Source: a virus
Direction: 5' to 3' (one strand)
DNA: 64,000 nt
Virus record (IMG/VR): IMGVR_UViG_3300036861_000610
Span: 62,001-126,000 of that record
In this document: positions 146 through 34,322 of the stretch, piece after piece
Layout of the letters: each line of letters opens with the position of its first letter
How positions within the stretch are numbered: the stretch's first letter is position 1
Made by a program: the position numbers and the translations under genes
The notes under the pieces: generated by a model
Told to the model about the DNA's origin: nothing
The model's input: only the letters and a program-made list of their open reading frames with translations
The model's database searches: none

Positions 146-685
146 ATGGTCTGTCGATCCTGTGAATCACCGACGGTTTATGCAACCAGCCTCTGCAAGT
201 CTTGCTATCTCCGAAAGCTTGTTTACGGACGCCTTGAGCGCGAAACTGGAGGATCCCTCTGGGAGCGACTTTGGCGGCATGTGGAAGTTGAGCCATCTAC
301 CGAGTGCTGGGTCTGGTATGGCTCTCGGACCGGCAGCGGTTATGCATCCACATATTTTGAGGGTAAGAATCAAAAAATTCATCGGCTCACCTTTGAACGC
401 ATTGGTCAAAGGTTCCTGGCAGCTGATGACATCGTTGATCACCTGTGCAGAAACCGTGCATGCGTTAATCCACAACACCTTGAAGCCGTCACTGCTCTGG
501 AAAATTTTCGCCGAGGAGTCGGTGCCGGCCTCAAGTGCGCCCACGACTCGGTCAATTTTTTCCAGCAGTCCATTAAGGGGACGTCGTACAAGCGCTGGGT
601 TTGCCGGACGTGCTCTCGTGAGCGTTGCGCAAAGTCGAGAGCTAAGCGAAAGGCGCAATTAAGTGGCATTTCTGGGTCGCAGTAA
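146..685 (+). CDS. HNH homing-type endonuclease with N-terminal zinc ribbon
   Basis: Predicted free-standing HNH endonuclease. From ATG 146 it opens with a zinc-ribbon-like CRSC...CKSC segment, then CWVWYG, an HRLTFE block, DHLCRNRACVNPQHLE (the HNH core with its zinc cysteines) and a C-terminal CRTC ribbon. Such genes are common intruders between phage structural genes. The start is unclear. The frame is open from TTG 53, ATG 146 fits the zinc-ribbon N-terminus best, but the only strong ribosome binding site (GAGGAGGA, 106-113) serves ATG 117 in a different frame. A one-base deletion upstream of 146 would explain this. The 3' end overlaps the portal start by 23 bases. Confidence 0.8.
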   Translation: MVCRSCESPTVYATSLCKSCYLRKLVYGRLERETGGSLWERLWRHVEVEPSTECWVWYGSRTGSGYASTYFEGKNQKIHRLTFERIGQRFLAADDIVDHLCRNRACVNPQHLEAVTALENFRRGVGAGLKCAHDSVNFFQQSIKGTSYKRWVCRTCSRERCAKSRAKRKAQLSGISGSQ

Positions 686-5830: not shown

Positions 5831-8800
5831 GTGGCCATTGATCTCGGCCGGTGGAAGCCGGAACTGCACCCTCGTGACTCGAAGGGTCGGTTCCGTGACA
5901 AGTGGGGACTGTCGCCTAAGGCGATGGCTGACGTGGACAGGCTGCTTGCTGCCTTCACTCACACCCCTCCCCTTCGCAGCAATGCTCATGCTGCGAGCTT
6001 CCTGCGTCAGCAGGCACCTAAGAGATCAGAGCGCCAGAAGGCTGTCCTCAAGAAGTTCCTGACCCGCGAGGGCAACGAAAACATCCAGTCGACGTTGCGG
6101 GCGGGCGACAAGGACACGCCCGACATCAAGGACCTCCGCGGCATGATGGTGCCACTGGAGCACGACTTGATCCTGAGTCGGGTAGTTGGTCCGGACGCGT
6201 TCGGTCTTCGTGCTGAAGACATGGATGGCGTGGAAGAGTGGTCCGGCCAGCGGATGATGGACCCGGGCTTCTCGCCAATGAACATTGGTGACGCCTACCA
6301 AATCGCTGGCCCCCACATTGAAATGCGGGTTCTGGTGCCTCGCGGTACCCCCGCCATCATTGTTGGTGCTGACGGCAACAGCGATGCTGACTCCCGGACC
6401 GTCATCTTGCCTGACGGCCTTGCTGTCCAAAACATCAAGATCCAAAGCGATGGCCGTGGCGGCTGGTACGCCATGTCGGTCGTTGGGTCACAGCAAGGCG
6501 TTGGCAAGTCGCCCCAGGCCCTCGCTGGCCGACCGCTGAAGGCCACCGAAAAGGCCCCAGCAATCGATGCAACACCCGACGAACTGGAACGTCGCGGCAT
6601 CTCCCCAGAGGAAGCCGGGATTCCAGCCCCCCAGGAGCAGCCGGGACGGTTTGGTCCAACAACCCCGTCGCCGGGAGCAGGACAGCGGGTCCTACCTCAA
6701 GCTGCACCAGGGCCAGAGCCGGCAGGGCCGAGCATTCCGAACCCGGCGGCCGGCGGTGTCCGCAAGGCCACCCCCATCCCGGCCGACGAAGTGCCTCTCG
6801 GTGCCGGCAAGGTCGTTGGTCCCGACACTGAAATCACGCCGCGGAAGAAGATCACGCCGCGACCCTCCAACCAGGTTGTCGATGAGGATGTCGCCCAGGC
6901 TGCTGACGCCAAGAAGGTAGCGGCGGCGGCCGACAGGGAGGCCAAGGCTCGGGAGGCTCGGCGCGTTGCCGCCGAGAAGGTGGTTGCCGACCGCGAAGCG
7001 CGGATGGAGCGGGAGCGGGCGGAGATCGCAGCCGAACGCGCCCAGGTTTCCGAGCAGAAGACGCAGATTATCGACCAGCAGCAGAAGCTGCTGGAGACCC
7101 TGATTGCCCAGCAGGGCGGCGGCGAAGGCGGCGGTACTCGGGCGGCAGACCTCACTCCGGCCCAAAAGAAGGCCGTCAAAGGTCGGGTGCGCCCAGAAGG
7201 CACCACTGACGAGGACCGTCGGCAGCAGGAGCTGGTCCGCCAGATCGATGCTGAGGAGGCAGCTGCAGCGGCACAGCCGGCGAAGAAGGGCATCAAGAAG
7301 GCTGCCAAAGCAGCGCCGGAGGCGGCCTCTGAGGCAGCGCCTGAGCCAGCTAAGACCGCCAAGAAGGTCGCCAAGAAGGCTGCGCCGCGAGTCAACCACG
7401 TCGGTACCCAGATCCGTAAAGATAAGTTCAAGAACCTGCAGGCCGGCGACGTGGTCGAAGTGCCGCCGCGCAACGGCCGGCCGGCCCGGCAGGCCACCGT
7501 CGACTTCGTTGACCGCGACGGCAACATTCACTTCACCGACAACTCCACAATCACTGGCGACGTCGGCACCATCCGGGTCGTGTCGCAAGGCACGTTGAAG
7601 CCGACGCCCGCAGTCCGGGCCAGGATGCAGCGTGCCTCCGACCGGGCCGCCGCCGGCCTCACCCCCAACGAGACTCTCCTGGCCGTCGCCGCCGGCAAGA
7701 TCACGCCCGAGCAGGCCGCTAAGAACCTCGAAAACAAGCTCATGGACGCGCGCAAGCTGCAGCTGCAGTTGGGCGACTTCGCGCCACCAGAGCTGGCCAA
7801 GGCCATCGAGGGCATCGAAAAGGTCGTCCGGGAGCTGCGTGCCCAGGAGGCTCCGTCGCCTGAGGCCGCCAAGAAGACGACCGCAGCGATGAAGCGTGCC
7901 GCCAAGAAGATCGCCGCGGACCGCGAGGCTGGCGGCGAAGAGGTGCCGCTGGAGGCTGTCCGCGAGACTCCGGCGACGAAGAGGGCTGCCGCGAAGGCTG
8001 CCCGGTCCATCAAGAAGGCCGCATCAACACCTGGTCCTGAGCTGTTGGACGAGACTCGGCCCGACGCCGAAAACATCAACGAGGTTCGTCAGGCGAAGAG
8101 CCTGGCCGACATCAACGCCATCGCGGCCACGCACAAGATCCAGATTCCGAAGAGTGTCGGCCGCCGTGAGGACCGCCGCGCCTTCCTGGAGAAGGCCCTG
8201 GCGATGCGGGACGGGGAGTCGAAGGCCGACTACGACGCCCGGATCGAGGGGCTTGGAGCCCCGGCCAAGAAGGCCGTCAACCCCTTGGTCAATGCCAGGC
8301 AGCGGCTGAAGGCTGGCGAAGATCCTGCGGCTGTTGCTCGCAGTCTGCGTAGTCGCGCCAATGCTCTGGACCGGTCTCTGCGCGTCGAGGGTGCACCAGG
8401 CGCTGACTCGGATTGGCGTAAGCGGACCGAGCAGCGTGTCACTGCGATGCGCAAGATGATCGCCGAACTGGAAGGTACGCCTGAGGCCCCGGCGGCGAAG
8501 AAGGCCGCCACGAAGGTTGCGAAGGCTGCACCGGCCAAGAAGGTTGCCGCTAAAGTCGCGAAGGCCGCACCGGAGAAGAAGGCAGTCCCGGCTAAGAGGG
8601 CGCTGCCCGACCGCGAAGCGCAGGATGCGGATGCGAAGCTTCAGGATTACGCGGAGGAGCTGAACAAGACTCTTACCCCCGCACAGAAGAGCCAGTTGGA
8701 CAAGGCCAATCTGAGCAACACGACCACACGGCAGTACTACGAAAGCCGCCGTTCTGGCGACTCTCACGCCAAGGCGCTGCGTGGGGCCAAGGCGGAGCAG

Positions 8801-11800
8801 GCGCGTCTGCGCGAGCAGTTCGAGAAGGAAAACGCACCGATTGTTCCTGGCTCGGCAAAGAAGGCGGCCAAGAAGGTTGCACCCGAGAAGGCAGCTCCGG
8901 CCAAGGTGGCCGCCAAAGCCATCAAGAAGGCCACTCCGGCCAGAGTCGCCGAGAAGCCGGTTATTACCCGGGCCACTCCGGTGTCCAAGATGGACGACGA
9001 TGCTGTCGTGGCTGAGGCTGCGAAGATCGAGGGTGCGCCCGAGACTCCGCGGCAGCGCGCTATCGCCCGTCGCGCCGCTCTGATCAACACTCGCCGCGAA
9101 CGGGTGCAGGCGCGCGAACAGGTCCAGGCCGCTCGGACGGCTGAGGCTGAGGCGCGTAAGGCAACGGCGGCGGCGAAGAAAGAAGCTGCTGCCGCGAGGC
9201 TGGATGCCGCCAACGCCCGAAAGGAAGCTGCTGCCGCGAAGAAGGCAGCAGCTGCGGCCAAGAAGGCCGCGCCGGAGAAGAAGGTCGCGAAGGCCCCAGC
9301 TAAGAAGGTCGTGAAGGCGGCACCGGAGAAGAAGGCCGTTCCGGCCAAGGCTCCGGCGAAGAAGGTGGCAGCGAAAGCTGCACCCGAAAAGGCTGCACCG
9401 GCCAAGAAGGTGGCCAAGGCCGCTCCGGCCAAGGCTGCTAAGGCGGCAACCGAGAAGCCAGTCATCACCCGCAAGGCCACCACCAAGGCGGCTGCCCCCG
9501 AGGCGCCCCCGGCCAAGGCGGCACCCACCGCCGCCCCCGGCACCGCGGCCAGACGTATCACGGCACTGCGTGCAGTGCCCGGCACCCGCGTCATGGTGGC
9601 AAAGCGCTCAGATGGCAGCTACGGATCGGCACCGCGTAAGACTGGCGCCATCCCCATCGAGGTCACAGCTCTGGATCGGGTCGGCGGCGGCCGGGGTGGT
9701 CGGTCTCGTCTCCGGATTACGGGCACCGACCCGGACGGGAACCAGGTTCAGCTCGACGTTTCGCCGTCGCAGACTTTCCCGCTGGAGGCGGCGCCCGCGA
9801 AGAAGGCCGCCAAGGCCATCAAGAAGGCTGTGCCGGCGAAGGCTGCACCTGAGCGGCCAGTCAAGGTTCTTCGCAAAAGTGCGGCCAAGAAAGCGCCAGC
9901 ATCGGCCTTTGACCGGGCTGACGTTATGTCGCGGTTGCAGAATTTTGAAAACCCGCCCAGCCGCAAAGACGCCACATCTTTACTGGAGCCCGCCTCCCGC
10001 GCAGACCTCCTTGCTATGGCGAAGGAAATAAGCATTCCGGGTGCCTCCCGGAAGACATCACCGGAGCTGCGTCGGGAGGTTGTCGAGGCCACAGCTGGTC
10101 GGCGCCTTGATTCTATTGCCATCCGCGGGTTCCGCGGCGAACGTCCGGGCGAGGCTGGAGTTCCGGAGGAACGTGCTGTTCGCCGGGCCAAGCCAGAAGC
10201 CCCGGTGGCCAAGAAGGTTACCCCGGCTGCCAAGAAGGTGGCCAAGGCTGCGCCGGTCAAGAAGGTGGCCGCTAAGGCCACACCGGAGAAGACCGCCCCC
10301 GCCAAGAAGGTGACGAAGGCTGCGCCGGAGAAGCCAGTCATCACCCGCAAGGCGACGACCAAGGCTGCACCGACCAAGGCTGCTACGCCAGCCAAGAAGG
10401 TGGCGGCGAAGAAGGTCGCCCCGGCCCCGAAGCAGAGTCTTGCCGAGTACACGGAGCAGACCCGCGCCGGCATGGGCCCGCTGCACGAGAAGCAGGTTCA
10501 TGGGCTGCGGTCCGGGCTCAGCGAAAGCTCGGTGGAGGAGTACTACAAGCGTCGGCAGGCTGGGGAAACCCACACTGCCGCCCTGCGCCACGCCCATGTT
10601 GCCCAGGGCAAGGTCAACGCCGAACGCGCCAAAGAACGTGCAAAGATCAACAAGGAGTCGGTGGCTAAGCTCACCGGCGAGCAGCGCGCGGCCCTGGTCG
10701 AATTTCGTGACAGCCATGTCGACGGGCTGAACAGCCGTCAGGCCAGCCAGGTCCGCAAGCTGGCCACCGGAAACGACGAGGTTTACTGGGCCCGTCGTCG
10801 GGCTGGAGCCGAACACCTTGAGGCCATGAAGGGTCTGGGGGAGGCGCCGGCCGCCAAGAAGGTCGCCAAGGCTGCGAAGAAGGCTATACCTGAGGTGCCG
10901 GCTGCGGCGAAGAAGGCCCCGGCGAAGGCCATCAAGAAGGCAGCCCCAGAAAAGCCATTTGACTTTACTCGTGCAACAACCGACGAAATCGAAGCAGCTG
11001 TAGAGGACGGCCGCCTTAAGACAATAGGTGATTCCAACCGGATTAACTTCAAGGCATCTGCAATCGATCGAGCAAGCAGGGACCTTGGTCGCGATGATGC
11101 CGCAGAAGTAAAGCGACTGCGGGATCTCGCGCGCCGTGTTAGCGAAGTTGCCCAGCCCAGTACCGAAGAACAGGAAGAAAACGCCCGACGCTTCAAGAAG
11201 AGCCAGCAGCGAAACGCCCTCATTGCCAAACGTCTAAGCGACCGCGGCATCACAAGTCCATCTTTGGACGAGATGCGGGCCGAGGCTCTGCTTATAGACG
11301 CGGAGGAGAAGGCCGCCTCAGCCAAGGCCGTCAGGGCCCCGGCGAAGGCCATCAAGAAGGCTGCCCCCGAGAGGCCGGTCATCACTCGGGCTGCGGCCAA
11401 AAAGGCCGCCGCAACTGAAGCACCGACCAAGGTTGCACTGAAGCGTAAGGGCCCCGGTACCAGGCCGGCTCCGACCGATGAGCAGATCCGCGAAGCGATG
11501 ACGCCGCGGATGAAGCAGCAGTTCGAGGGCCTGGACGACGCTGGCACAGCCAAGTACCTGGAGTCTCGCCGGAGCGGCGAGAACCACACCGCCTCCCTGC
11601 GGGAAGCCAAGAAGGTCGCTGCACCTGCCGCAAAGAAGGTGCCCGCTAAGGCCATCAAGAAGGCAGCTCCGGAGAAGCCAGTCATCACTCGGGCTACTCC
11701 AGTGTCCAAGATGGACGATGACGCAGTTATAGCCGAGGCTGCGAAGATCGAAGGCGCTCCTGCGACGCCTCGCGAACGGGCGATTTCCCGCAAGGCTGGG

Positions 11801-14800
11801 CTTATCAATGCCCGCCGGGAGCGGGCGGCGGCCAAGGCCGCCAAGGCAGCCGCTCCAGCTAAGGCCGCAAAGGCTCCGGCGAAGAAGGCCGTCACGGCGC
11901 TCGCCGAGCCCAAGAAGCCAATGGCTGGCTACCGCGACACCGGTGAAATTGTTCCGGAGGCAAACCGCGAAGGGCTGCACGTTTCGCCGCAGAAGTGGGG
12001 CGGCTACGGCGTCTACGACGGCAAGCAAAGTCGCGTCGAGGCCGACTACAAGACCGAGGCCACGGCACGGCGCCGAGTTCGGGAGCTGCAGGCTGGCGAC
12101 ACCGTCAAGGCCATCATCCCCAAGGAGCGCACCGCCCGACAGAAGGCCGCAGACAAGAAGGAAGCCGACCGCCAAAACGCTTTGGCACGGGCGGCTGGGC
12201 GCGGACCTGAGGTTGAGGCTCCCGCTGCGAAGAAGGCTCCAGCCAAGGCCATCAAGAAGTCCGCGCCAGAAAAGGTGACGCCGGCCAAGGCGACCAAAGT
12301 CGCCAAGGCCGCACCAGCCAAGGAGGCTGTCGCCAAAACTGTTCCCGAAAAGGCGACAGTTGCCAAGGCAGCGCCAGGGAAGCCGGTCATTAAGCGGGCC
12401 AGCAAGAAGGCCACGGCCACCCGCGGAATCACCGAGGCGGAGAAGAAGGCCCCGCCGGCAAAGGTTGGCGCCGCACGCCCCGAAGCGGCTGCCGCCACCG
12501 TCCGGCCCGTGGACTCGTGGAGCCCCGGCGACGGCATGGACACGTCGTTGTACCTGTCGCTGCAGCAATCGCTCGGTAAGGCGAAGCTGGGGAACCTCAA
12601 CACCCTGGATCGGGAGACTCGCGTCTCTGCTCGACACCAGAACGTTCCGGCTGCCTACCAGGCCCTGCGGGCAGACCTGGCCGGCAGCCCCGACCTGCAG
12701 AGCCGCCTGGACCGTTGGTACCGCGGCACATTCAAGCCGGCAGGCAAGGGTGACGATCTCACCAGGCCCCGGATGCGGCCTGCCGTCAAGGCGGCAGAAG
12801 CAACCAAGGCGACCCGGACGCCGCGCAAGGTGGTGCCGTCGACCCCGGCTGCCGACGCGAAGATCCGTGCCACGCTTGCCAAGCTGAAGCCGCAGGGCAA
12901 GGAAGACGTCCTGGCCAGCATGACTCCCGAGCAGCGTAAGGCTGTGGAGGAAGCAGTTGATCGCGCTGATGCTCGGCTGGCCGCCCGTAAGGCGACCAAG
13001 GCCGCCAAGGCTGTAGCGCCGGAGGTTTCGACACCGACCGCGGCGAAGAAAACCGCTACGGCCAAGAAGGTTGCCAAGGCCGCGCCGGAGAAGCCGACCG
13101 TTAAGAGGGCGGCCAAGAAGGTCGCGGCGCAGGCCGAAGCCCCTGCCGCCGCGCCTGCCAAGAAGGCCGCGCGCCCGCTCATCAAGCGGCAGGGCAAGGC
13201 TGTCACCGCGGCGGAGGCTCGCAAGGAGTCGGCGCTGGAAGCGGTGCGCGGCCACGACATGGGCCGGCGCACCGACAATGAGACCCTCGGCCAGTACCGC
13301 GTCATCGAGCGGAACCTGCAGAGCGGTGACTACACCCCAGTCCAGGCGAAGGGTGCCGCTCGGCGTGAGGCGCAATTGTGGCGCCGGCAGGCGCGCGCCA
13401 TTGAGGCTGATAAGGGTCTCAGTGCAGATGAGAAGCTGACAGGCCGTTCCCGGGCATTGTCGGCTGGCGAAAACTACGACAAGCTGGCTGATGCCATCGC
13501 CGAGTCGCAGACCCGGGATCGGATTGAGGCTAAGCGGTTTGGTGAGGCGCCGGCTGCTGCACCCAGCAAGCGGGTCGCGAAGGCCGCGCCAACGAAGGCA
13601 GCTGCTAAGGCCGCGCCGGAGAAGCCGGTCATCAAGCGGGCCGCCAAGAAGACTGCACCGGAAGCCCCGCTCACTGACCGGGAGGCCAGGGCAGCACAGC
13701 GGGCCGGAAGAACACCTGCGCCAGAGACCGCGAAGCAGAAGGCCGCAAAGGCTGAGATTGCCCGTAAGGCCAAGGCCACCCAGGCCCGTATCGAAGCTGA
13801 ACGTAAGGCTGACGACAAGGCCCACGCCGCGTTCTTCCGGCCGATCCTCAAGGATGCTGGGGTCAAGGATTCGGAGCTGTCTGACCTGGACCGCACTGGC
13901 CTGCGGGTGGTTGGCGACAAGCTGCGCGACGGGAAGATCAGCAAGGCCACTGCAGCGCGACGGCTGCGGACTGACCGTGAGGATTCGCCGCTTAACAAGA
14001 TTGCTGACGCGATCGAGGCCAAGCCGCGTAAGGCTGCGGTCAAGAAGGCTGCACCCGAAGCCCCGACCAAGGCAGCGAAGGCCCCCGCTAAGGCGGTCAA
14101 GAAAACCGTTCCGGCCACGGCAACAGCCGAGAAGAAGCCGACCATTACTCGACGAGTGAAGAAGGTCGCACCCGCCGAAGCCCCGGCCGCCAAGAAGGCT
14201 GAGACACCAGCCAAGAAGGTGGCCGCTCCGACTAAGGCAGCGACTAAGACCGTTCCCGCCAAGAAGGCCGCACCGATCAAGAAGACGGCCACCAAGGCGG
14301 CGCCGGCCAAGGCTACAGCCAAACTGACCCGTAAGCCCACGGATGTCGACCAAAAGACCATCGACTCCCTGAACAACGACCAGATCAGCCAGATTAACGA
14401 CCTGAGCCCCGACAGTCAGGACGCGTACTGGGCCCGCCGCAACCGCGGCATCGGCCACGACAGCGCTTGGCGGTCGGTGCCCAAGGGTGACATTGAGGCT
14501 CTGCGCCGACCCAGCCAGCCGGGACGAGAAGGTGAGGCACGGCCGGTCGGCAACGCCGAGTCGGTTGAGGCCCTGCGTCGACCAACCATCACCCGCAGTG
14601 GTACCGGCAGTCGCCGCCTCACCGAGGACGAGAAGGACGACGTTCTTCGGCAGGCGGCAGACGCCAAGACCGCCAACCCGAACTGGCCTGTCACTCGGGA
14701 AGATCGAGACTTGGCCCGGGAGGCCGCCGAAATCCAAGAGGCTCGTGCCTCCACCGGTCGGGCAGTAAAGGCCACCAAGAAGGTGGCCCCGAAGGAGGTT

Positions 14801-17800: not shown

Positions 17801-20800
17801 ATCAAGAAGGCCACTCCGACCAAGGCGCCAGCCAAGGCGGCCACTAAGGCAGTACCGGCGGCCAAGAAGGTGGCAGCCAAGGCTGTCGAGAAGCCGGTCA
17901 TCAAGCGGGCAGCGAAGAAGGTCACTCCACCGGAGGAGCGGTCACGGATCCGTACCGCCGCGCCGGAGACCAAGAACGCCATGGATGTCAACGTTGGTGA
18001 CGTCATCCGCCTGCCGCAAGACCAGAGGCTCCGCGAGCCAGGCGAGGTTGTCCGGGTTCAGCGCATGGGTCGCATCGTCCGGATCACCCGCGACGACGGC
18101 AAGGTTGCCCAGCTGCTGCCGCGGTCCAAGGTGGAACTGGCCGAGCTGCCCAACAACCAGGACAGGGTTGCCCGTCGCGCCGGGCTGCCAACGTCGGAGG
18201 AGCGGGCGGTCCGTCGGGCTACTCCCGAGGGACCGGCCACACCTGCGAAGAAGACGGCTACGGCTCCAGCGAAGAAGGCTGCCGCAGCACCTACAAAGAA
18301 GGCCGCGCCGGCCAAGGCCACTCCGGTGGCAGCAAAGAAGGCCACCGCCCCCGCCAAGGCTGCACCGACCAAGGCTGCACCAGCCAAGAAGGTGGCTGCC
18401 AAGAAGGCCGTTGAGCCGGCCGAGAAGTTCCTGCCGCCACTGGCCGACGGTACGCAACGCAAGAGCCTGACCAACGTCAAGGTCGGCGACACCATCCGCG
18501 TGGGCAACAACCCAGGCGACCTGGGCGTTCCGCAACGCGTGACCAAGGTCGAGCGCGACGGCAACGACGTCAAGATCACCCGGGCCGACGGCTCGGTCAT
18601 GCGGGGCAGCCCCAACACCGCCGTGTGGATGGGTGACACCCTGCGTCCAGGCGAGCGGTCGGGATCCAAGGCCACCAGGCCAACAATCACCCGGGCGGCC
18701 AAGAAAGCGGCGCCTGAGGCTGGGGCCCCTGAAGCGACACCGGCGAAGAAGGCCATCCGCAAGGCAACGCCAGCTAAGACCACGGCCGCCCGCAAGGAGT
18801 TGGACGAGAACCAGGTCGGTTCGACTCCGGCGCGGAACATGGTCAAGGACGCCAACCGAGACCTGAGTCGAGGCGACAGTCGCCAGGAGGTCGCTGACCG
18901 TCTGCGTGGCAACGCGGAAGAGCTGCGCAGCGGTGACCCGTTGACCAGTTCCGACATGCCGGACCGGATTGACCGCAGCGACGCAGACATGCGAGAAATC
19001 GCACTGATTGACGCTCGTCGCCTGGACTCCTTGGCTGATGATGTCGAGCGTGGACCTGCCGCGCCGGCCAAGAAGACAATCCGCAAGGCGCCGGCTAAGA
19101 AGGCAACCGCAACGCCCACAGGCACCAAGTCCAGTCCTGAACTGGACACCATGCAGCGCGACCGCGAGCGGCTCAACAACCGGATCCGGCGCTACGAGAA
19201 CAAGCGCAACACCGAGGGCGAGCCTGGCTCGGTGGAGAAGCGCCTGATCGGTGAGCGCGACGCCCTCGACACCAAGATCCTGGCCGAGAAGGAACGTCTC
19301 AACCCTGACGGTCTGGAGCGGGTCGAAGGGCGTGAACTGTACGACCTGGCCCGGACCAATGACGTCTCCACCTTCCTGACCCCGGACATGGTCCGGGACG
19401 AGCTGCGGAAGAAGGGCATCAAGGCTCCGGCTAAGAAGGCCGGAGTGCGGAAGGTTTCGGCCGCGAAGAAGGCCGCACCTGAGGCACCCGAGGCTCCGGC
19501 TGCGAAGAAGGCGCGGCCGACTATCACCCGGGCGGCCGACCGGAAGGCATTCCCTGAAGCGCCAGGCAACCTGAAGGACAAGCGCCGCCTCGACAACGTC
19601 AAGGACGACGACAAGGCCGCCGTCCGCACCCGGGCGACCGAGCTGCGCGACAACGACAAGAAGACGCCGGCCGCCGCCTGGAAGCAGGCCCTGGATGAGC
19701 ACGAGGCCGAGAAGGCTCGCCGTGACATGGAGGTGCTGCAGCGCGGCGGCTACCGCGACGACGGACAGGTGCCGGCGAAGAAGACAGCAGCCACGAAGAG
19801 GGCTCCGGCGAAGGTTATTCAGTTGGCCCCGAAGTCCACGCCGACTGACGAGAACGACAAAATCGGCCAGGTCATCGATGACCTCAACGCCAAGAAGATC
19901 ACCAAGAAAACGGCCGTCAAGCGTCTGCGGGACGAAGGCACCATCGAAGCCAACGACTTGGCAGATGGCCTCGAAGGTAAGGAGATCGGGGCCGGCCGGG
20001 CCGCTAAGGCGGCGGCGAAGGCTGCAAAGAAGGCAACACCGAAGGCTGCCACCGCGGTTCCCTACTCACGAGTCCAGACAGGCGACAAGGCCAGCTGGAC
20101 CGACGCTGACGGCAACAAGGTCTCCGGCACTGTGCAGCGGATGCCACGCGGCGTCTGGGTGGACTGGGAAAGCGGCCGACGGGAGCGCATCAGCTCCCGG
20201 CCGGGCCACAACGGGGTCACTTTTGAGCGCGGCAATGCGCCAGAGAAGCCGGTCATTAAGCGGGCCACCAAGGCAGCAGCCCCGACCAAGGCCGCACCAG
20301 AGAGGCCGGTCATCAAGCGTGCGACCAAGAAAGCGGCACCTGAGGCACCGACGCCGGCAGCCGAGGCTGAGCGCAAACTCAGCCCTCGTCTACTTCCAGG
20401 GCAGCGCCGTCAACTGGAGGCCATGACCCCGGCCGACCGGGAGAAGTACTGGGCACGTCGCGCCGACGGTGCGAACCACGCGGACGCGATTGGCGGCGAC
20501 GCCAGGGCGCAGCGGGCCCTTGACGGCAAAGAGCGTTTCGAGGCTCGCCTTAACGACCGGCAAAAGGGCCAGGTAAACGACTTGCCCTCGGAGGAGCAGA
20601 CCGACTACTGGAACCACCGCGAGTCTGGCGACAGTCACACCGCGGCCTTCCGTAAGGTGTCGATGGCCAGGCGGGCCGGCGCGGCCGAGAAGTCCACGCC
20701 GGCTGCCGCCAAGAAAGCTGAGCCGGCGGCCGTCGCCAAGAAGACCCCTGCGAAGCCGACCATCACCCGGGCAGCGAAGAAAACGGCCGCCCCCGAAGCC

Positions 20801-23800
20801 CCGGTCAAGGCGACGAAGGCAGCCGAGGCGCCAGCGGCACCGGCACGGAGCCGGACCAAGTTCACCCCGTCGCAGGTGGAGCTGCTGCGTCGAATCGAAA
20901 AAGGCCACATCGACGCGGATGCTGACCTGAGTACTCAGGAGAAGCGTGACCTGAACCGGCTGAGCCGTCACGGCCTGGTCCGTACCGACATGGTCCAAAA
21001 GGGCCAGAAGAAGGTGGCCCGCAACACCATCAGTGCCGACGGCCGCGACGAGTTGAAGAAGATCGACGCCCCTGCCCCGGCGAAGAAAACAGCCGCCAAG
21101 ACGGCAGCTAAGGCGACTCCCGAGGCTCCCGCCAAGAAGGCTGCCGCTCCGGCCAAGAAGGCTGCGACCCCGGCGAAGAAGGCCACCACTCCAACCACGC
21201 CAGTCAAGACGGCAACTAGCAAGGTCACTGAACCTACAGACGCCGCCACCACGGCCCGGGACCGGCTGGCCGGCCGCCAGAAGGAAGCCCGCATCCGTAA
21301 GGCGACCGGCGCTGTGGACCTGGCGGCCAACATGCTCAACGCCGCGGAGGCATTCCGCAACGGCGACAACCCGGACGGCTTCAAGCGCACTGTTCGCCAG
21401 GATCTTCAGGGCAAGACTCCTGGTGACTTGAAGAATCCGCGCGACACCCACGCAGCTGGCTGGGAAGCCTTGAAGAAGGCAATGGGTCCAGAAAGCGAGT
21501 GGGACACCCCCGAGAAGCTCGACGTACGCCTCCGTTCTGCGCTTCAGGACATGGGCATTCGAGTCGACAACAACTACGGTGACCGGCTGACCTTTGACCC
21601 GGACACAATGAACGCGTTCGACGGGGCCAACATCGGCCCAGGGGACGAAGTCACCGTCGTCAGACCTGGCCTGTCCTACCGGGACAAGGACGGAACGCTG
21701 CACGTCCTGCGTCCGCCGACGGTCACTCGGCGGAGGGGGGGAGATACAGACACCGGCCCTTTAGCTCCTGACGGCGGGCCGCCGCCCCGCAAGGCCGTTC
21801 CGGCTACGTCGCGCCCAAGGATTCACAACGGATCCGCGAGGTATGACCAGGATGGGAACCTCGTCGGGAGCACATCCAAAGGGGCCCAGTTCCGTCTCGA
21901 CCAGATCATTGACGTCAATGACCCAGATTTCCCTGACGACGGGATCCCTGTCCGGGGTTTCAGGGCACATGGGTATGACGTCAAAGAGGGGCGCCTGACT
22001 CGGCACGACGGCGTCCTCTACCTCACCGAGGAAGGGGACGGGCCGAAAGACAAGGAGCACCGCGAGCGCACCTTGAAGCAGGTTCAGGAGTGGCAGGACA
22101 GTCTGCCAGAGAACGAGAAAAAGTACGTCAAGTCCATCTCCTCCTTCAGCGGCAATAGCCCGGGGGACAGTTACTGGCAGCAGCGCCGTGGGCTACAGGA
22201 CATGGTGGCTTCCGCGAGCGCCGGCAACGGTGAAATCTCCATCTGGAGACACGGTGGGGACTACGGGCACGGCTCCAACCCGGCGACCCTCGACCATGAA
22301 CTTGGCCACCTGATTGACGACAGGTACCAGTACTCCGGCGATGGACGATGGGAACATGCGGGGCAGTCCGACAACATCGGACTCAAGGGTCGCGCCCCCG
22401 GCTTCAGCGGATTCAATCGCCTCAGCGATGAGGAAGCGGACACCGGCGGGAGGGACACCTACCGGTACGGCATCAGCAGGTATGGCACCAGTGACACCGG
22501 CGAGGACTTTGCGGAGGCGTATTCCGCCTACAAGCGTGGCTGGGTTGGCACCATCGACGACCCTGACAACCCGGGCCGTCGGCGGAAGGTCCACTTCCGC
22601 GAGCTGTACCCAGCTCGTGCCGCGATTTTCGATGGACTTTTCCCCGAGAGGGGAGTGGCGCAGCGGCGTGAGATCGCTGAATACATGGCCAGAGACCCGG
22701 ACCTTCGGGAGCTGACCGACTTCCACGAAGACTTCCTGGCTCAGGGCCTGTTGCACAAGAAGACCCTTCCTGAGCTGCGTGCCATCGCGAAGAAGGTCGG
22801 AAGGTCGAAGTACGGCGCCACTCGTGAAGGCTTGATGCGCCACATCCTGGAGGGCACGAGAGGCCCGCAGTACCGGCCGCGGTCAGGTATGTACGACACC
22901 TTGAAGCGGCTTGGCACCCGTGACGCGGCCCAGGAGCGGATGAAGGCCTACTCCCCGAGCCTGCTCCGGGAGCTGCTGCACGAGCTGGACGTGGAGAGCC
23001 CCGGCCGGCGCCGCAGCCGCGAAGAGAAGACCACCGCCATCCTGGACAAGCTGTACCCACAGGCTCCAGCCCCAGCGAAGAAGGCCGTCGCCAAGGAGGC
23101 GGCAGCCCCGGCGGCTAAGGCCGTGAAGAAGGCTGCCCCTGCAAAGCTGACGCCGGCTCGCCTGCGTCGCGCACAGCATGCCGCAGCAGAGGAGCTTGCC
23201 AAAACTGCAGCCGACCTTGAAGAGAACATCGACAAGGGCGCGTCGGACCGGGCGCTTCTGCAGTTGGTGCGGACGCGACTTGCCCGACTGAAGATCAAGG
23301 ATGTTGGCGACGAGTACGTCTGGCAGCGCCCAGGCGGCGACGTTCGCCTGGAGTCAGACCTAACCCCCACCGAGGATGCCGACATCCTCTCGGCCCGACG
23401 TCTTGCGGGATTGGGCCGTGCGGTGCAGCAGAACATCAACGACCGGTCGGCCATGCGGACAGCCATCCGGAAGAACCTGGCCGAACACGAGCTGACACCC
23501 ATTGGCGCGGCCGGCGACAAGGTTAAGTACGACCCAGCCATCCATCAGCCGATGCGATCACTGCCCAAGGGAACTGCGGTTCAGGTTGTGCACCCGGGAT
23601 ACCAGTGGCGCACACCTGAAGGTACGTCCGAAACTATCCTGCGACCACTGGTGATGGAGGCCCCGTCGCCACGGAAGGTCACGGGTGCCGCGAAGCCAAC
23701 GATCAAACGGGCCGCCAAGAAAGCTGCACCGTCGGCAAAGGCCGCCCCCGAGAAGCCAACGATCAAGCGGGCGGCCAAGAAAGCGGCTCCAACTGAAAGG

Positions 23801-25882
23801 CCACGGCTGCGCCAGGCTGAAACGGAACCCACTGTCCTCACCGGCCAGCAGGGTCGGATCACCAGCGACATGGGTCCACGCATCAACACCGGCCCCGAAG
23901 GCATCCCCGCGAGGGACTACACCCTGCGATCCGGGTACCACGTCGACAACGGCACGTTCTACCGCATCGACAAAATCCCGTACCTTATCGAGCACGACGA
24001 CACTCCCGAAGGAAAGGCCTACGCTGACGGAGTCCAGAAAGCCCTGCAAGCTCACCGCGTATCCCTGCCGCTGGAACGACGTCGACTGCAACGCTCCTAC
24101 GCCTGGGTCCGCGGCCGGAACCCAAAGGACGTGGAGGCAGCTCACCGCCGTGGCCTCAATCCGGACAAATGGTTGAGTGACGCAACCTCCGACAGTATGG
24201 GCGGGATCACGGTCTACAACCGAGACGAGTTCGGCTTCGAAGGCGTCGACCAGACCTTGGACCATGAGTTCGCGCACAGCTTCGATCACGCCGACACCCA
24301 GGCTGGCCTCGTGGGGGCAAGTTCGCCGGAGTGGCTTGACGCAGCGGCCTCCGACAACGTGCACCGCGCGACCCTGTCCGATGTCACCTTCGACCAGGGG
24401 CCGGGCGCCAACAGCACCATCCGACTGGAAAAGGCCAAGCCCCACCCTGAAATCGAAGGCCACTTCCCAGACGGTGCAACCGACTACGCTCTTGTCGACT
24501 CCGCCGAAGACTTCGCCGAAGCTTTCCGCCTCTACCGCGCCGGTCCAATCGGCAAGGGGCGACGCACCAAGGGTGGACCTATTGAGCCACTGTGGTTCCG
24601 GGATGTTTTCCCGGCCCGTGCCGCCATCTTCGACGAAAAGCTTCCCGACTTTGCCGAGCGACAGTTGCGTCAGATCGAGCAGGCCCGCGGCGGGGACCTG
24701 TCGACGGCGCAACGGCGGGCACTGATCCGGAAGCTGATCAAGGAGCGTGACAACAGCGAGCGCAGCATCGCCTTCCGGGAGCTGGCCAAGAGCGCGCCAC
24801 CAGAACGGGCTCGACGCCGCCCGGCGCCCGAGCCGGCGCCAGTTCAACCCACGAGGCGTAGATCTCTTCGCTCTCCATCTTCATCTCAATCGCCATCATC
24901 GGCTCGACCGGCCGGCAGGACTGCTAGCGAGCGTCAAGAGATTGAAGACCTGATCCGTGGAGAATCCACCGATCGCGTCCCTCGTGCACGGGTCCGCGAC
25001 GGTCGACTCACTGGCCGAGTCGGAATTCTCGACCGGCTAAACGAGACTCTTCGTGCCGATACTGGGCCCGAAGGCATCCTGGTCCATGACCTGGAGCTGC
25101 AAAATATCAATGGCTATAAGGTTCGCAATGGACGTGCGTGGCGGTTCAATGGCGTTACCTATCTACTTGAGGATGGAGCCGACCCGGTAAAATCCGCGGA
25201 GCTAATGGACGCCATTTATGCCGAACACAATGCCCTGCCGGCCGAGATGCGTGGATTCCAGCGCGCCTACGCGCTGCTTCAGCACCCAGACGCGACGGAC
25301 GCATACGAGGACGCTAAGGCGCGAATGGAGGCGCGCAGACTCGGTAACCCTCGTCCTAAGCCGAGCACCTGGCAAACATTGGCAGCGGCACGTGGCGGCG
25401 ACATCTACATTTTCCGGTTGGGTGAACCGGCCACTCAACTGACACCAATTGATCGAGTTACAAAAACGGTGCGCCACGAGGGGGGTCACAACCTCGACAA
25501 TCAGGGTCACGACAGCGGGCTTGGGCCGATTTCGTCGTCTTCAAGTTGGTCGGCCGCAACTCGACCAACCGCGCAGCCAGTGTTCGACTTCGACCAAAAC
25601 GATCGAGGCTCGATTTCGCCAATAAGATTTGCGCCAAATGATGACGCGCCATTCCCGGGCGGCGTAACCAACTACGGCACTGCAAGCCCCTCAGAGGACT
25701 TCGCCGAGGCGGTCGCCCTGTATACCGCAGGCATCATCGGCCGTGGCCGACTCACCGAAAACGGTCCCATAGTGGACATCTATTTCCGAGACCTGTTCCC
25801 GGAGCGAGCCGCCGAGCTGGACCGATACATGCCGAACTTCGGCGCTGACCAGATGGCCTCCATCCGGAGACTGCGAAGCTAG
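5831..25882 (+). CDS. Giant modular protein: ART-like domain, H1-like linkers with repeated modules, three C-terminal metallopeptidase domains
   Basis: 6,683 aa in one uninterrupted frame from GTG 5831. Residues 1-225 open with HPRDSKGRFRDK and look like an ADP-ribosyltransferase fold (Arg117, Ser148), but the catalytic E-x-E position reads S188-R-T190, so it is probably inactive. From ~480 to ~5120 the chain alternates Ala/Lys/Pro linkers like those of histone H1 and mycobacterial HupB with small modules: nine copies of a YWxRRxxGxxHxxA helical unit, about six GD-x-[IV] small beta-barrels, and several SAP/Rho-N-like helical units. About 23 short [KR]P-x-[IV]-x-R motifs mark linker edges. The C-terminal ~1,300 residues hold three gluzincin-like units: H5489ELGH with E5558DFAEA, H6145EFAH with E6226DFAEA, and H6549EGGH with E6622DFAEA. 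Position suggests a packaged head protein; function is unproven. Confidence 0.93.
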   Translation: MAIDLGRWKPELHPRDSKGRFRDKWGLSPKAMADVDRLLAAFTHTPPLRSNAHAASFLRQQAPKRSERQKAVLKKFLTREGNENIQSTLRAGDKDTPDIKDLRGMMVPLEHDLILSRVVGPDAFGLRAEDMDGVEEWSGQRMMDPGFSPMNIGDAYQIAGPHIEMRVLVPRGTPAIIVGADGNSDADSRTVILPDGLAVQNIKIQSDGRGGWYAMSVVGSQQGVGKSPQALAGRPLKATEKAPAIDATPDELERRGISPEEAGIPAPQEQPGRFGPTTPSPGAGQRVLPQAAPGPEPAGPSIPNPAAGGVRKATPIPADEVPLGAGKVVGPDTEITPRKKITPRPSNQVVDEDVAQAADAKKVAAAADREAKAREARRVAAEKVVADREARMERERAEIAAERAQVSEQKTQIIDQQQKLLETLIAQQGGGEGGGTRAADLTPAQKKAVKGRVRPEGTTDEDRRQQELVRQIDAEEAAAAAQPAKKGIKKAAKAAPEAASEAAPEPAKTAKKVAKKAAPRVNHVGTQIRKDKFKNLQAGDVVEVPPRNGRPARQATVDFVDRDGNIHFTDNSTITGDVGTIRVVSQGTLKPTPAVRARMQRASDRAAAGLTPNETLLAVAAGKITPEQAAKNLENKLMDARKLQLQLGDFAPPELAKAIEGIEKVVRELRAQEAPSPEAAKKTTAAMKRAAKKIAADREAGGEEVPLEAVRETPATKRAAAKAARSIKKAASTPGPELLDETRPDAENINEVRQAKSLADINAIAATHKIQIPKSVGRREDRRAFLEKALAMRDGESKADYDARIEGLGAPAKKAVNPLVNARQRLKAGEDPAAVARSLRSRANALDRSLRVEGAPGADSDWRKRTEQRVTAMRKMIAELEGTPEAPAAKKAATKVAKAAPAKKVAAKVAKAAPEKKAVPAKRALPDREAQDADAKLQDYAEELNKTLTPAQKSQLDKANLSNTTTRQYYESRRSGDSHAKALRGAKAEQARLREQFEKENAPIVPGSAKKAAKKVAPEKAAPAKVAAKAIKKATPARVAEKPVITRATPVSKMDDDAVVAEAAKIEGAPETPRQRAIARRAALINTRRERVQAREQVQAARTAEAEARKATAAAKKEAAAARLDAANARKEAAAAKKAAAAAKKAAPEKKVAKAPAKKVVKAAPEKKAVPAKAPAKKVAAKAAPEKAAPAKKVAKAAPAKAAKAATEKPVITRKATTKAAAPEAPPAKAAPTAAPGTAARRITALRAVPGTRVMVAKRSDGSYGSAPRKTGAIPIEVTALDRVGGGRGGRSRLRITGTDPDGNQVQLDVSPSQTFPLEAAPAKKAAKAIKKAVPAKAAPERPVKVLRKSAAKKAPASAFDRADVMSRLQNFENPPSRKDATSLLEPASRADLLAMAKEISIPGASRKTSPELRREVVEATAGRRLDSIAIRGFRGERPGEAGVPEERAVRRAKPEAPVAKKVTPAAKKVAKAAPVKKVAAKATPEKTAPAKKVTKAAPEKPVITRKATTKAAPTKAATPAKKVAAKKVAPAPKQSLAEYTEQTRAGMGPLHEKQVHGLRSGLSESSVEEYYKRRQAGETHTAALRHAHVAQGKVNAERAKERAKINKESVAKLTGEQRAALVEFRDSHVDGLNSRQASQVRKLATGNDEVYWARRRAGAEHLEAMKGLGEAPAAKKVAKAAKKAIPEVPAAAKKAPAKAIKKAAPEKPFDFTRATTDEIEAAVEDGRLKTIGDSNRINFKASAIDRASRDLGRDDAAEVKRLRDLARRVSEVAQPSTEEQEENARRFKKSQQRNALIAKRLSDRGITSPSLDEMRAEALLIDAEEKAASAKAVRAPAKAIKKAAPERPVITRAAAKKAAATEAPTKVALKRKGPGTRPAPTDEQIREAMTPRMKQQFEGLDDAGTAKYLESRRSGENHTASLREAKKVAAPAAKKVPAKAIKKAAPEKPVITRATPVSKMDDDAVIAEAAKIEGAPATPRERAISRKAGLINARRERAAAKAAKAAAPAKAAKAPAKKAVTALAEPKKPMAGYRDTGEIVPEANREGLHVSPQKWGGYGVYDGKQSRVEADYKTEATARRRVRELQAGDTVKAIIPKERTARQKAADKKEADRQNALARAAGRGPEVEAPAAKKAPAKAIKKSAPEKVTPAKATKVAKAAPAKEAVAKTVPEKATVAKAAPGKPVIKRASKKATATRGITEAEKKAPPAKVGAARPEAAAATVRPVDSWSPGDGMDTSLYLSLQQSLGKAKLGNLNTLDRETRVSARHQNVPAAYQALRADLAGSPDLQSRLDRWYRGTFKPAGKGDDLTRPRMRPAVKAAEATKATRTPRKVVPSTPAADAKIRATLAKLKPQGKEDVLASMTPEQRKAVEEAVDRADARLAARKATKAAKAVAPEVSTPTAAKKTATAKKVAKAAPEKPTVKRAAKKVAAQAEAPAAAPAKKAARPLIKRQGKAVTAAEARKESALEAVRGHDMGRRTDNETLGQYRVIERNLQSGDYTPVQAKGAARREAQLWRRQARAIEADKGLSADEKLTGRSRALSAGENYDKLADAIAESQTRDRIEAKRFGEAPAAAPSKRVAKAAPTKAAAKAAPEKPVIKRAAKKTAPEAPLTDREARAAQRAGRTPAPETAKQKAAKAEIARKAKATQARIEAERKADDKAHAAFFRPILKDAGVKDSELSDLDRTGLRVVGDKLRDGKISKATAARRLRTDREDSPLNKIADAIEAKPRKAAVKKAAPEAPTKAAKAPAKAVKKTVPATATAEKKPTITRRVKKVAPAEAPAAKKAETPAKKVAAPTKAATKTVPAKKAAPIKKTATKAAPAKATAKLTRKPTDVDQKTIDSLNNDQISQINDLSPDSQDAYWARRNRGIGHDSAWRSVPKGDIEALRRPSQPGREGEARPVGNAESVEALRRPTITRSGTGSRRLTEDEKDDVLRQAADAKTANPNWPVTREDRDLAREAAEIQEARASTGRAVKATKKVAPKEVVKKVAPNVIKTRERRAKQYDEAVGDVPGERGGLLRSTKKALAEGEPAATAKDRLSKRAESLRTQAELLREKGDSDFVGDEITKLERDADTYQRAADLAGKKVPTIKKAVKPGEKVAVKDLTDGDVAILDGKRGTFRQPRPRTTFIEFPDGSQEKVQKSRLAQMVRDKKLQLLGGDHRANAPEGGAPEAPAAKKARPSIKRAPATAAADAPGNARDRKRLDATGNRDAVKARADELVQDGKTSPAAWRQALDEAEAPEERSTRRRLTGPVGGEGNVDTSLESRRARRAVSRGVTTPGGESQVVPLKRAAKKATPEAAAPEKPVIERAAKKVAAPEVAELAKATKAAAAKKSVKKATPEAPTKAVKKAVPAKKAAPEAPAAAKKAPAKAIKKAAPEKPVIKRAAKKVAAAPAPVKAVPAKRAPIKKAAPETPAAAAERRLTPRLSELQQRQVEGMSPAGARKYWERRAEGNDHADAVAGIPHRRPIGTRSGPLAGPARSHDAHTQRAMEGLDKFQSSLSEPQAAQLDETLGLHKTAAARRKAKLDYWANRGAGDSHTAALKKVTPEGADTPKAVRPTITRAAAKKAEAGPPSRKAVSELRASERNAKYGPDGPSHIDLSRVGEGIDLGDDQSILDEAQAKLNRGETPRMVAKGLDDHANGILTHGIYVHGAYQAREKTGIPEIDAGKPARAAENEAELKKYRDRSDRLKELAEKLRGTRRPVARKATTAAPAKAAKAAPIKAAPTKRVAGQRRVSPWDPIPVFRDGGESGLRDRLSELDTEQLKDMIAAGGMDSSGLAAKWRSRDRLTNLIVDRVQGRATKGRAFRPEPATKVAKAPARSIKKATPAVAETPAVKKAVKAVKKTAAEVAPEAPAKKTAAAKKAARKTIPEKLPTGAADLVRLGKEHGILGADELSPEALRDALTAKRKDPNLVPIASELIPQEIRDASPEKLRAIAKVGGFELEGDTADELRLDLIRKAITSAARERLEGRSARKKAAPAKAIKKATPTKAPAKAATKAVPAAKKVAAKAVEKPVIKRAAKKVTPPEERSRIRTAAPETKNAMDVNVGDVIRLPQDQRLREPGEVVRVQRMGRIVRITRDDGKVAQLLPRSKVELAELPNNQDRVARRAGLPTSEERAVRRATPEGPATPAKKTATAPAKKAAAAPTKKAAPAKATPVAAKKATAPAKAAPTKAAPAKKVAAKKAVEPAEKFLPPLADGTQRKSLTNVKVGDTIRVGNNPGDLGVPQRVTKVERDGNDVKITRADGSVMRGSPNTAVWMGDTLRPGERSGSKATRPTITRAAKKAAPEAGAPEATPAKKAIRKATPAKTTAARKELDENQVGSTPARNMVKDANRDLSRGDSRQEVADRLRGNAEELRSGDPLTSSDMPDRIDRSDADMREIALIDARRLDSLADDVERGPAAPAKKTIRKAPAKKATATPTGTKSSPELDTMQRDRERLNNRIRRYENKRNTEGEPGSVEKRLIGERDALDTKILAEKERLNPDGLERVEGRELYDLARTNDVSTFLTPDMVRDELRKKGIKAPAKKAGVRKVSAAKKAAPEAPEAPAAKKARPTITRAADRKAFPEAPGNLKDKRRLDNVKDDDKAAVRTRATELRDNDKKTPAAAWKQALDEHEAEKARRDMEVLQRGGYRDDGQVPAKKTAATKRAPAKVIQLAPKSTPTDENDKIGQVIDDLNAKKITKKTAVKRLRDEGTIEANDLADGLEGKEIGAGRAAKAAAKAAKKATPKAATAVPYSRVQTGDKASWTDADGNKVSGTVQRMPRGVWVDWESGRRERISSRPGHNGVTFERGNAPEKPVIKRATKAAAPTKAAPERPVIKRATKKAAPEAPTPAAEAERKLSPRLLPGQRRQLEAMTPADREKYWARRADGANHADAIGGDARAQRALDGKERFEARLNDRQKGQVNDLPSEEQTDYWNHRESGDSHTAAFRKVSMARRAGAAEKSTPAAAKKAEPAAVAKKTPAKPTITRAAKKTAAPEAPVKATKAAEAPAAPARSRTKFTPSQVELLRRIEKGHIDADADLSTQEKRDLNRLSRHGLVRTDMVQKGQKKVARNTISADGRDELKKIDAPAPAKKTAAKTAAKATPEAPAKKAAAPAKKAATPAKKATTPTTPVKTATSKVTEPTDAATTARDRLAGRQKEARIRKATGAVDLAANMLNAAEAFRNGDNPDGFKRTVRQDLQGKTPGDLKNPRDTHAAGWEALKKAMGPESEWDTPEKLDVRLRSALQDMGIRVDNNYGDRLTFDPDTMNAFDGANIGPGDEVTVVRPGLSYRDKDGTLHVLRPPTVTRRRGGDTDTGPLAPDGGPPPRKAVPATSRPRIHNGSARYDQDGNLVGSTSKGAQFRLDQIIDVNDPDFPDDGIPVRGFRAHGYDVKEGRLTRHDGVLYLTEEGDGPKDKEHRERTLKQVQEWQDSLPENEKKYVKSISSFSGNSPGDSYWQQRRGLQDMVASASAGNGEISIWRHGGDYGHGSNPATLDHELGHLIDDRYQYSGDGRWEHAGQSDNIGLKGRAPGFSGFNRLSDEEADTGGRDTYRYGISRYGTSDTGEDFAEAYSAYKRGWVGTIDDPDNPGRRRKVHFRELYPARAAIFDGLFPERGVAQRREIAEYMARDPDLRELTDFHEDFLAQGLLHKKTLPELRAIAKKVGRSKYGATREGLMRHILEGTRGPQYRPRSGMYDTLKRLGTRDAAQERMKAYSPSLLRELLHELDVESPGRRRSREEKTTAILDKLYPQAPAPAKKAVAKEAAAPAAKAVKKAAPAKLTPARLRRAQHAAAEELAKTAADLEENIDKGASDRALLQLVRTRLARLKIKDVGDEYVWQRPGGDVRLESDLTPTEDADILSARRLAGLGRAVQQNINDRSAMRTAIRKNLAEHELTPIGAAGDKVKYDPAIHQPMRSLPKGTAVQVVHPGYQWRTPEGTSETILRPLVMEAPSPRKVTGAAKPTIKRAAKKAAPSAKAAPEKPTIKRAAKKAAPTERPRLRQAETEPTVLTGQQGRITSDMGPRINTGPEGIPARDYTLRSGYHVDNGTFYRIDKIPYLIEHDDTPEGKAYADGVQKALQAHRVSLPLERRRLQRSYAWVRGRNPKDVEAAHRRGLNPDKWLSDATSDSMGGITVYNRDEFGFEGVDQTLDHEFAHSFDHADTQAGLVGASSPEWLDAAASDNVHRATLSDVTFDQGPGANSTIRLEKAKPHPEIEGHFPDGATDYALVDSAEDFAEAFRLYRAGPIGKGRRTKGGPIEPLWFRDVFPARAAIFDEKLPDFAERQLRQIEQARGGDLSTAQRRALIRKLIKERDNSERSIAFRELAKSAPPERARRRPAPEPAPVQPTRRRSLRSPSSSQSPSSARPAGRTASERQEIEDLIRGESTDRVPRARVRDGRLTGRVGILDRLNETLRADTGPEGILVHDLELQNINGYKVRNGRAWRFNGVTYLLEDGADPVKSAELMDAIYAEHNALPAEMRGFQRAYALLQHPDATDAYEDAKARMEARRLGNPRPKPSTWQTLAAARGGDIYIFRLGEPATQLTPIDRVTKTVRHEGGHNLDNQGHDSGLGPISSSSSWSAATRPTAQPVFDFDQNDRGSISPIRFAPNDDAPFPGGVTNYGTASPSEDFAEAVALYTAGIIGRGRLTENGPIVDIYFRDLFPERAAELDRYMPNFGADQMASIRRLRS
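7270..23165 (+). repeat. Imperfect Ala/Lys/Pro-coding linker repeats inside the giant gene
   Basis: Scattered short repeats built from GCC/GCG, AAG and CCG codons encode linkers such as KKAAPEKPVIKRA and KKAPAKAIKKA. They are interspersed with folded modules, densest to about 21,200 and again near 23,060-23,150 and 23,690-23,800. The units are related but not identical and not evenly spaced, so they are protein-level linker repeats rather than a tandem array. The antisense strand across them gives long false open frames rich in Leu and Gly. Confidence 0.85.
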
Positions 25883-26289: not shown

Positions 26290-26431
26290 CACGGCAATAC
26301 TGGACAAGAAGTCAATCTCCGACTTATCATCCAGCTAGATCTACAAAATCTCATTCTTCAGGGCAGCGCTGTGAGCCTCCTGGGGACTAAGGACTGTGCG
26401 TCCTTCTTCCTTCCCAAGAGAGGTTCCAGCT

Positions 26432-34292: not shown

Positions 34293-34322
34293 ATCACATG
34301 AGCTTTGAGGGGTGATGTTGTC

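What the first reader, a model, noticed from the sequence alone, without database searches (positions are those of the whole stretch)
5831..25882. A 6,683-residue modular head-region protein with histone-H1-like linkers
One uninterrupted frame of 20 kb fills 31% of the window, between the maturation protease genes and the major capsid gene. Its Ala/Lys/Pro linkers resemble the DNA-binding tails of histone H1 and mycobacterial HupB. It begins with an ART-like fold and ends with three metallopeptidase domains. A plausible reading is a capsid-internal protein that binds packaged DNA and is ejected as a multi-domain effector. I know of no described phage protein with this layout.
Basis: partly seen in the sequence, partly recalled or inferred. 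Interest (0 to 1): 0.92.

Follow-up and report, generated by a model that had tools for sequence, protein, structure and literature searches.

The report
Giant cysteine-free phage head-cargo protein
A virus of actinobacteria carries one 6,683-residue gene in its head-building cluster that looks like cargo packed in the capsid and threaded into the host with the DNA; it belongs to a domain-shuffling gene family that lacks cysteine almost completely, as several proven injected phage proteins do.

Summary
[quoted passage not shown] It is no assembly artefact: six other viral records carry homologous 4,350-6,640-aa frames at the same place, and modules aligned with the closest show dN/dS 0.09-0.39. 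It is the extreme member of a new family seen in about 60 contigs, almost always directly after the protease, of about 500-6,683 aa; the 4-7 kaa forms make one clade.

Ends: an N-terminal ADP-ribosyltransferase fold with a degenerate active site and an HPRDxxGRF motif; three C-terminal lethal-factor-like zincin domains with intact HExxH...E. Between them, small modules shuffled between phages, on positively charged Ala/Lys/Pro linkers.

New evidence for ejection: no cysteine (family 0.012%; neighbouring genes 0.9-3%), like N4 vRNAP, T7 gp15/16 and P22 gp7/16/20. In relatives the zincin is fused to portal and the ART-like domain to MuF. The motif also opens cysteine-free DarB-like polyvalent proteins of Streptomyces prophages.

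Verdict: a new variant of capsid-packaged 'polyvalent' ejection proteins; packaging and ejection are inferred, not shown. The histone comparison holds only for linker composition and charge.

The parts
5831..25882 (+). giant head-cargo gene, 6,683 aa, zero cysteines
5831..6517 (+). conserved N-terminal core (aa 1-229): tag plus ART-like fold
   Evidence: 10/10 family members compared; profile vs VIP2/CdtA/Ia E 5e-8; AF2 pLDDT 79; Foldseek ART E 3e-10
5867..5893 (+). HPRDSKGRF motif (aa 13-21)
   Evidence: kept in all 9 members found through the capsid gene, i.e. independently of the motif
6518..21226 (+). central string of small modules on A/K/P linkers, order shuffled between phages
7403..7603 (+). 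small beta-type module (aa 525-591), family A3
8243..8461 (+). module A6, copy 1
8645..8794 (+). module A4 (about 40 aa, invariant Y and H), copy 1 of 9
9560..9763 (+). module A9, in 7/7 giants
9926..10171 (+). module A8 (GRRLDSIAIRGFRG)
10451..10600 (+). module A4, copy 2
10700..10822 (+). module A4, copy 3
11471..11587 (+). module A4, copy 4
14345..14485 (+). module A4, copy 5
16115..16240 (+). module A4, copy 6
16319..16489 (+). module A4, copy 7
16655..16942 (+). module A6, copy 2
17573..17755 (+). module A7, Rho_N/SAP-like by a weak match only (E 0.029 in one member)
17957..18145 (+). module A3
18446..18637 (+). module A3, best-conserved copy, in all seven giants at different positions
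18800..19045 (+). module A6, copy 3
20381..20506 (+). module A4, copy 8
20522..20665 (+). module A4, copy 9
21227..21748 (+). pre-zincin module A5, copy 1 (weak GrpE-like hint)
21863..22717 (+). zincin 1 (HELGH...EDFAE)
23174..23668 (+). pre-zincin module A5, copy 2
23816..24724 (+). zincin 2 (HEFAH...EDFAE), structure modelled
24986..25879 (+). zincin 3 (HEGGH...EDFAE), C-terminus
663..2633 (+). portal
   Evidence: phrog_776 E 7e-136
2623..3351 (+). MuF-like head protein
   Evidence: PF04233
4508..5821 (+). capsid maturation protease
   Evidence: phrog_859 and phrog_18402; tblastn to annotated proteases
26396..28138 (+). major capsid protein
   Evidence: phrog_777 E 3e-120
34305..36449 (+). 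tape measure protein, also cysteine-free

Best explanation
It is a capsid-packaged, ejected 'beads-on-a-string' protein: a new variant of the polyvalent proteins, in phages of actinobacteria. Inferred working order: (1) it is made with the head proteins and docks on the inner head or portal through its conserved N-terminus (HPRDxxGRF motif plus a catalytically degenerate ART-fold domain); (2) its positively charged A/K/P linkers let it lie among the packaged DNA, its small modules staying narrow enough to pass portal and tail; (3) having no cysteine it cannot be locked by disulfides, so it threads through the tail with the DNA; (4) its C-terminal zincins cut, most likely the protein itself (in the head or after entry), perhaps also host proteins, freeing modules that act in early infection. 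Shown here: gene reality, synteny, fusions, domain identities, cysteine absence, module shuffling. Inferred: packaging, ejection, cleavage and the modules' targets.
For: Order portal-MuF-protease-[this gene]-capsid in about 60 contigs. Fusions in relatives: zincin on the portal C-terminus (L134, L139, L141, L142, L146), ART-like domain in one frame with MuF (L114). Zero cysteine in 6,683 aa; family 10 Cys in 82,297 residues against portal 0.86%, protease 0.91%, capsid 1.5%, MuF 1.4%, major tail protein 3.0%; outside linkers 2 Cys in 30,304. Proven ejected proteins N4 gp50/51/52, T7 gp15/16 and P22 gp7/16/20 have none (gp50 read for 3,342 residues); published rationale for N4-like vRNAP (PMC3915230). 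The tape measure, which also passes the tail, is equally depleted (0.078%). The tag opens >3,390-aa cysteine-free proteins in Streptomyces genomes, with methylase and helicase matches and a portal-MuF gene upstream. All 29 zincins keep HExxH and the downstream Glu. Beads-on-a-string ejection is the published model for N4 vRNAP (PMC12633501).
Against: No proteomics: presence in virions is not shown. Scaffold proteins (T7 gp9, P22 gp8) are also cysteine-free, and P1 DarB, thought to be injected, has 9 Cys, so the signature is neither unique nor universal. No function could be assigned to the central modules. The ART catalytic residues are lost in the giant forms. Self-cleavage by the zincins is argued from published precedent only.
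Confidence: 0.68

Rival explanations
1. An assembly-only internal or scaffold protein: it organises the prohead (perhaps setting its size, being longest in the largest-genome clade) and is removed by the neighbouring maturation protease.
For: Position between protease and capsid gene is the usual scaffold slot; T7 and P22 scaffolds are cysteine-free; 4-7 kaa forms occur in the clade whose records reach 87-158 kb, 0.5-2.1 kaa forms in records of mostly 54-64 kb.
Against: Related head modules lack it (L013/L014); length varies more than ten-fold; it carries ART-fold and zincin domains and shuffled modules; scaffolds known to me are short and helical.
Confidence: 0.14
2. Packaged only as processed pieces: the maturation protease or the zincins cut it in the prohead, and only some fragments (for example the N-terminal half, as proposed for P1 DdrB) are ejected.
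For: P1 DdrB is processed to about 700 aa before packaging (PMC5512222); Burro virions show a ~250 kDa protein against a >4,400-aa gene product (PMC7302621).
Against: N4 vRNAP, also zincin-bearing, is packaged unprocessed; no cleavage site was identified here.
Confidence: 0.12
3. A late cytoplasmic protein that is not in the virion, for example a nucleoid-coating or host-takeover protein that happens to lie in the head operon.
For: Basic A/K/P linkers resemble those of cellular DNA-associated proteins (resemblance from own knowledge).
Against: Near-strict synteny, portal and MuF fusions, tag shared with DarB-like proteins and cysteine absence all point to the virion.
Confidence: 0.05
4. Sequencing or assembly artefact joining unrelated genes.
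For: None found.
Against: Independent records with the same layout; purifying selection in all aligned modules.
Confidence: 0.01

Closest known systems
Polyvalent proteins (Iyer et al. 2017, PMC5512222), e.g. P1 DarB/DdrB, N4-type vRNAP fusions, Streptomyces OJH72069 (12,242 aa)
   Same: Very large, multi-domain, encoded with portal/MuF genes; zincin MPTase of the lethal-factor-like kind; ART domain; HPRD tag shared with DarB-like proteins of Streptomyces prophages
   Different: No methylase, SNF2, polymerase, ArdC or MuF domain found in it; ART is of the VIP2-like R-S-E type and degenerate; most of the length is small uncharacterised modules on A/K/P linkers
N4 virion RNA polymerase (gp50, about 3,500 aa)
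   Same: Giant, cysteine-free, beads-on-a-string, with a zincin domain
   Different: No polymerase domain found by Pfam; other phage type; twice as long
Microbacterium phage Burro gp27 and cluster EK proteins (>4,400 aa, virion-associated; PMC7302621)
   Same: Giant actinophage gene beside head genes, few known domains, possibly processed
   Different: Podoviruses; our tiles match none of 50,697 phage records
T4 Alt / VIP2-type ARTs
   Same: Fold; head-packaged precedent
   Different: STS and catalytic Glu missing in the giants; the Glu position is kept in about half of the family
Histone H1 / HupB tails
   Same: Ala/Lys/Pro-rich basic low-complexity sequence
   Different: Less Lys, no H1 or HU domain, linkers separate many folded modules

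Membership tests
Polyvalent proteins | 2 or more distinct domains in one long polypeptide | tested here: met
   ART fold, three zincins, several recurrent module families
Polyvalent proteins | Contains domains of the published network (MPTase, ART, SNF2, methylase, ParB...) | tested here: met
   Lethal-factor-like zincin fold and HExxH...E; ART fold; the others not found
Polyvalent proteins | Encoded with phage head/packaging genes | tested here: met
   Synteny in about 60 contigs
Polyvalent proteins | Packaged and delivered into the host | not testable with these tools
   Only indirect: cysteine absence, tag, fusions
Active R-S-E ADP-ribosyltransferase (Alt/VIP2) | ART fold | tested here: met
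Active R-S-E ADP-ribosyltransferase (Alt/VIP2) | Arg of strand 1 | tested here: met
   R117 in this protein; R in 49 of 62 aligned
Active R-S-E ADP-ribosyltransferase (Alt/VIP2) | STS motif and catalytic Glu | tested here: not met
   SPMN and RTV in this protein
Lethal-factor-like zincin peptidases | Fold, HExxH and downstream Glu | tested here: met
   29/29 by motif; Foldseek E 4e-4 to lethal factor, 2e-7 to phage minor capsid proteins, though TM-scores are modest at 0.25-0.47
Lethal-factor-like zincin peptidases | Proteolytic activity | not testable with these tools
   needs an assay
Histone H1 / HupB | H1 winged helix or HU fold | tested here: not met
   No such Pfam match in any tile at E 0.1
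Histone H1 / HupB | Basic A/K/P tail that binds DNA | tested here: inconclusive
   Composition and charge fit; binding not tested
N4-type ejection proteins | Cysteine-free large ejected polypeptide | tested here: inconclusive
   Cysteine-free met; ejection untested

The most novel reading that the evidence does not exclude
HPRDxxGRF together with cysteine absence marks a general class of head-delivered cargo in actinobacterial phages, and this family is its most extreme case: a modular string that grew to 4-7 kaa by gaining and shuffling modules in the lineage with the largest genomes, possibly lying along the packaged DNA.
Probability: 0.35. Interest if true: 0.8.

Novelty: new variant of a known kind. 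Interest (0 to 1): 0.64.

Why it matters
Giant head-region genes of phages are mostly unannotated. If right, this one gives a family, an expansion placed in one clade, and two cheap sequence tests (the HPRDxxGRF motif and cysteine absence against neighbouring genes) for picking out proteins that phages thread into cells. That would make 'which phage proteins are injected?' partly testable from sequence, and a beads-on-a-string carrier evolved to pass a phage tail is of interest for protein translocation.

Tried and rejected
Assembly artefact: rejected. Size alone as novelty: rejected (a 12,242-aa polyvalent protein is already reported). Active ART: rejected for the giants. H1/HU homology: no domain found. 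The DSL-LC01 3,290-aa head gene as a homologue: no BLAST match. Pfam and PDB profile searches for central modules (A3, A5, A6, A7, A9): nothing significant; Rho_N (0.029, one member) and GrpE (0.064, two members) kept only as leads. Close relatives among 50,697 isolated phage records: none. Host prophages carrying the gene: only the N-terminal tag region in three Streptomyces genomes. The motif-based scans are biased by construction, so conservation of the motif is claimed only for the nine members found through the capsid gene; in the motif scan several large tagged ORFs of other kinds are cysteine-free, but some tagged ORFs have many cysteines and may be chance matches.

Full report
OBSERVATION. 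The frame 5831-25882 is open over 6,683 codons. Codon-position GC is constant along it and like that of the portal gene; dN/dS in ten modules aligned with the closest relative (G004, 158-kb record) is 0.09-0.39, next to 0.08-0.14 for portal, MuF, protease and capsid. The window is bases 62001-126000 of a 147,889-base virus record. Head genes are of the phiAsp2/Rosebush/Wizardvirus type, so the host is probably an actinobacterium; the host itself is not identified.

FAMILY. A capsid-gene search gave 19 loci. Six records have a giant frame directly before the capsid gene: about 6,640, 6,200, 5,890, 4,800, 4,450 and 4,350 aa, stop to stop; others have about 1.2-1.4 kaa, and L013/L014 have none. 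A search with the N-terminal domain gave 80 loci (same-record duplicates included), with frames from about 300-500 aa upward, some cut by contig ends. The order is portal-MuF-(hypothetical)-protease-[this gene]-capsid wherever the contig reaches far enough, with few exceptions. On a portal tree the complete 4-7 kaa forms fall in one clade inside the family. Records of that clade reach 87-158 kb, while complete shorter forms lie in records of mostly 54-64 kb; record completeness is not known, and the giants are one clade, so this is one association, not a statistical trend.

ANATOMY. N-terminus: HPRDxxGRF plus a domain matched by profile to VIP2, CdtA and Ia (E 5e-8), modelled at pLDDT 79, Foldseek to ARTs E 3e-10. 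The Arg is kept; STS and the catalytic Glu are not in the giants, while about half of the family keeps the Glu. C-terminus: three zincins with HExxH and a downstream Glu; model pLDDT 84; Foldseek to lethal-factor-type zincins E 4e-4 with low TM-scores, and to phage 'minor capsid' proteins E 2e-7. Middle: segments of median 88 aa between linkers; iterative profiles show module families shared between phages in different order and number, e.g. A4 nine times here, A3 in all seven giants, A6 three times. Their functions are unknown.

LINKERS. They make up 32% of residues and carry +388 of the +429 net charge; linkers are positive (+0.11 to +0.20 per residue) in all seven giants while the modules are near neutral. 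This fits non-specific contact with DNA but equally plain flexible linkers in a high-GC genome.

CYSTEINE. The protein has none; at the rate of the other structural genes of the window about 89 would be expected. Across 62 family sequences (deduplicated by their first 200 residues, some truncated) there are 10 in 82,297 residues, against 0.86-3.0% in the genes beside them; only the tape measure is similarly poor (0.078%). Outside linkers the seven giants have 2 in 30,304, so disorder alone does not explain it. N4 gp50 (3,342 residues read), gp51 and gp52, T7 gp15 and gp16, P22 gp7, gp16 and gp20 have none; T7 gp14 has 1, P1 DarB 9, DarA 1, DdrB 2; the scaffolds T7 gp9 and P22 gp8 have none. 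Absence of cysteine in N4-like vRNAP has been noted and linked to threading through the tail (PMC3915230).

LINKS TO HEAD CARGO. In relatives the zincin is the C-terminus of the portal protein (L134, L139, L141, L142, L146) and the ART-like domain shares a frame with MuF (L114); in L013 the zincin is joined to the gene before the protease. In three Streptomyces genomes the motif with its flanks opens a >3,390-aa frame with no cysteine; in L154, where it was scanned, the frame has N6-methylase and SNF2/helicase matches, and in L154 and L155 a gene with portal and (weak) MuF matches lies directly upstream. These are polyvalent proteins in the sense of PMC5512222.

MECHANISM. See best explanation. 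Shown: gene, family, domains, order, fusions, cysteine absence. Inferred: packaging, ejection, zincin action. Polyvalent zincins were proposed to process their own proteins (PMC5512222), and N4 vRNAP is modelled as beads on a string passing a ~35 A channel (PMC12633501).

NOVELTY. The kind is known; the architecture, the family, its single-clade expansion, the motif-plus-cysteine signature and the portal-zincin fusions were not found in the papers read here. A full literature search was not possible.

Noticed in passing
G010 portal (L032/L033), L042, L064: Portal frames of 977-993 aa; in G010 a roughly 1 kb in-frame insertion splits the match at portal residue 331. The Pfam intein model PF14890 finds nothing in G010.
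   Followed up: partly
window 60289-60993 (-), with similar 15-nt repeats at 59814-59961 and 61155-61193: Protein with GFNRDGYDxxG repeats and a Lys/Ala-rich tail.
   Followed up: no
window 54220-55506 (-): Protein with an N-terminal hydrophobic stretch, a long TTPPATTPPV linker and a further C-terminal domain; may be secreted or surface-exposed.
   Followed up: no
L207 and L215 (contig IMGVR_UViG_3300035693_000027, 25.6 kb): Several HPRDxxGRF-bearing ORFs in one contig (six pattern matches in two stretches that may overlap).
   Followed up: no
L221, L205, L219, L189: Tagged frames of 1.8-2.8 kaa without cysteine that do not match the ART-like profile: possible further head cargo.
   Followed up: no
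L023 6026-15895 (phage DSL-LC01): 3,289-aa head-region protein with 2 cysteines, no BLAST match to this family.
   Followed up: partly
window 42122-43093 and 44715-45944: Two glycosyltransferases of one PHROG downstream of the tail genes.
   Followed up: no
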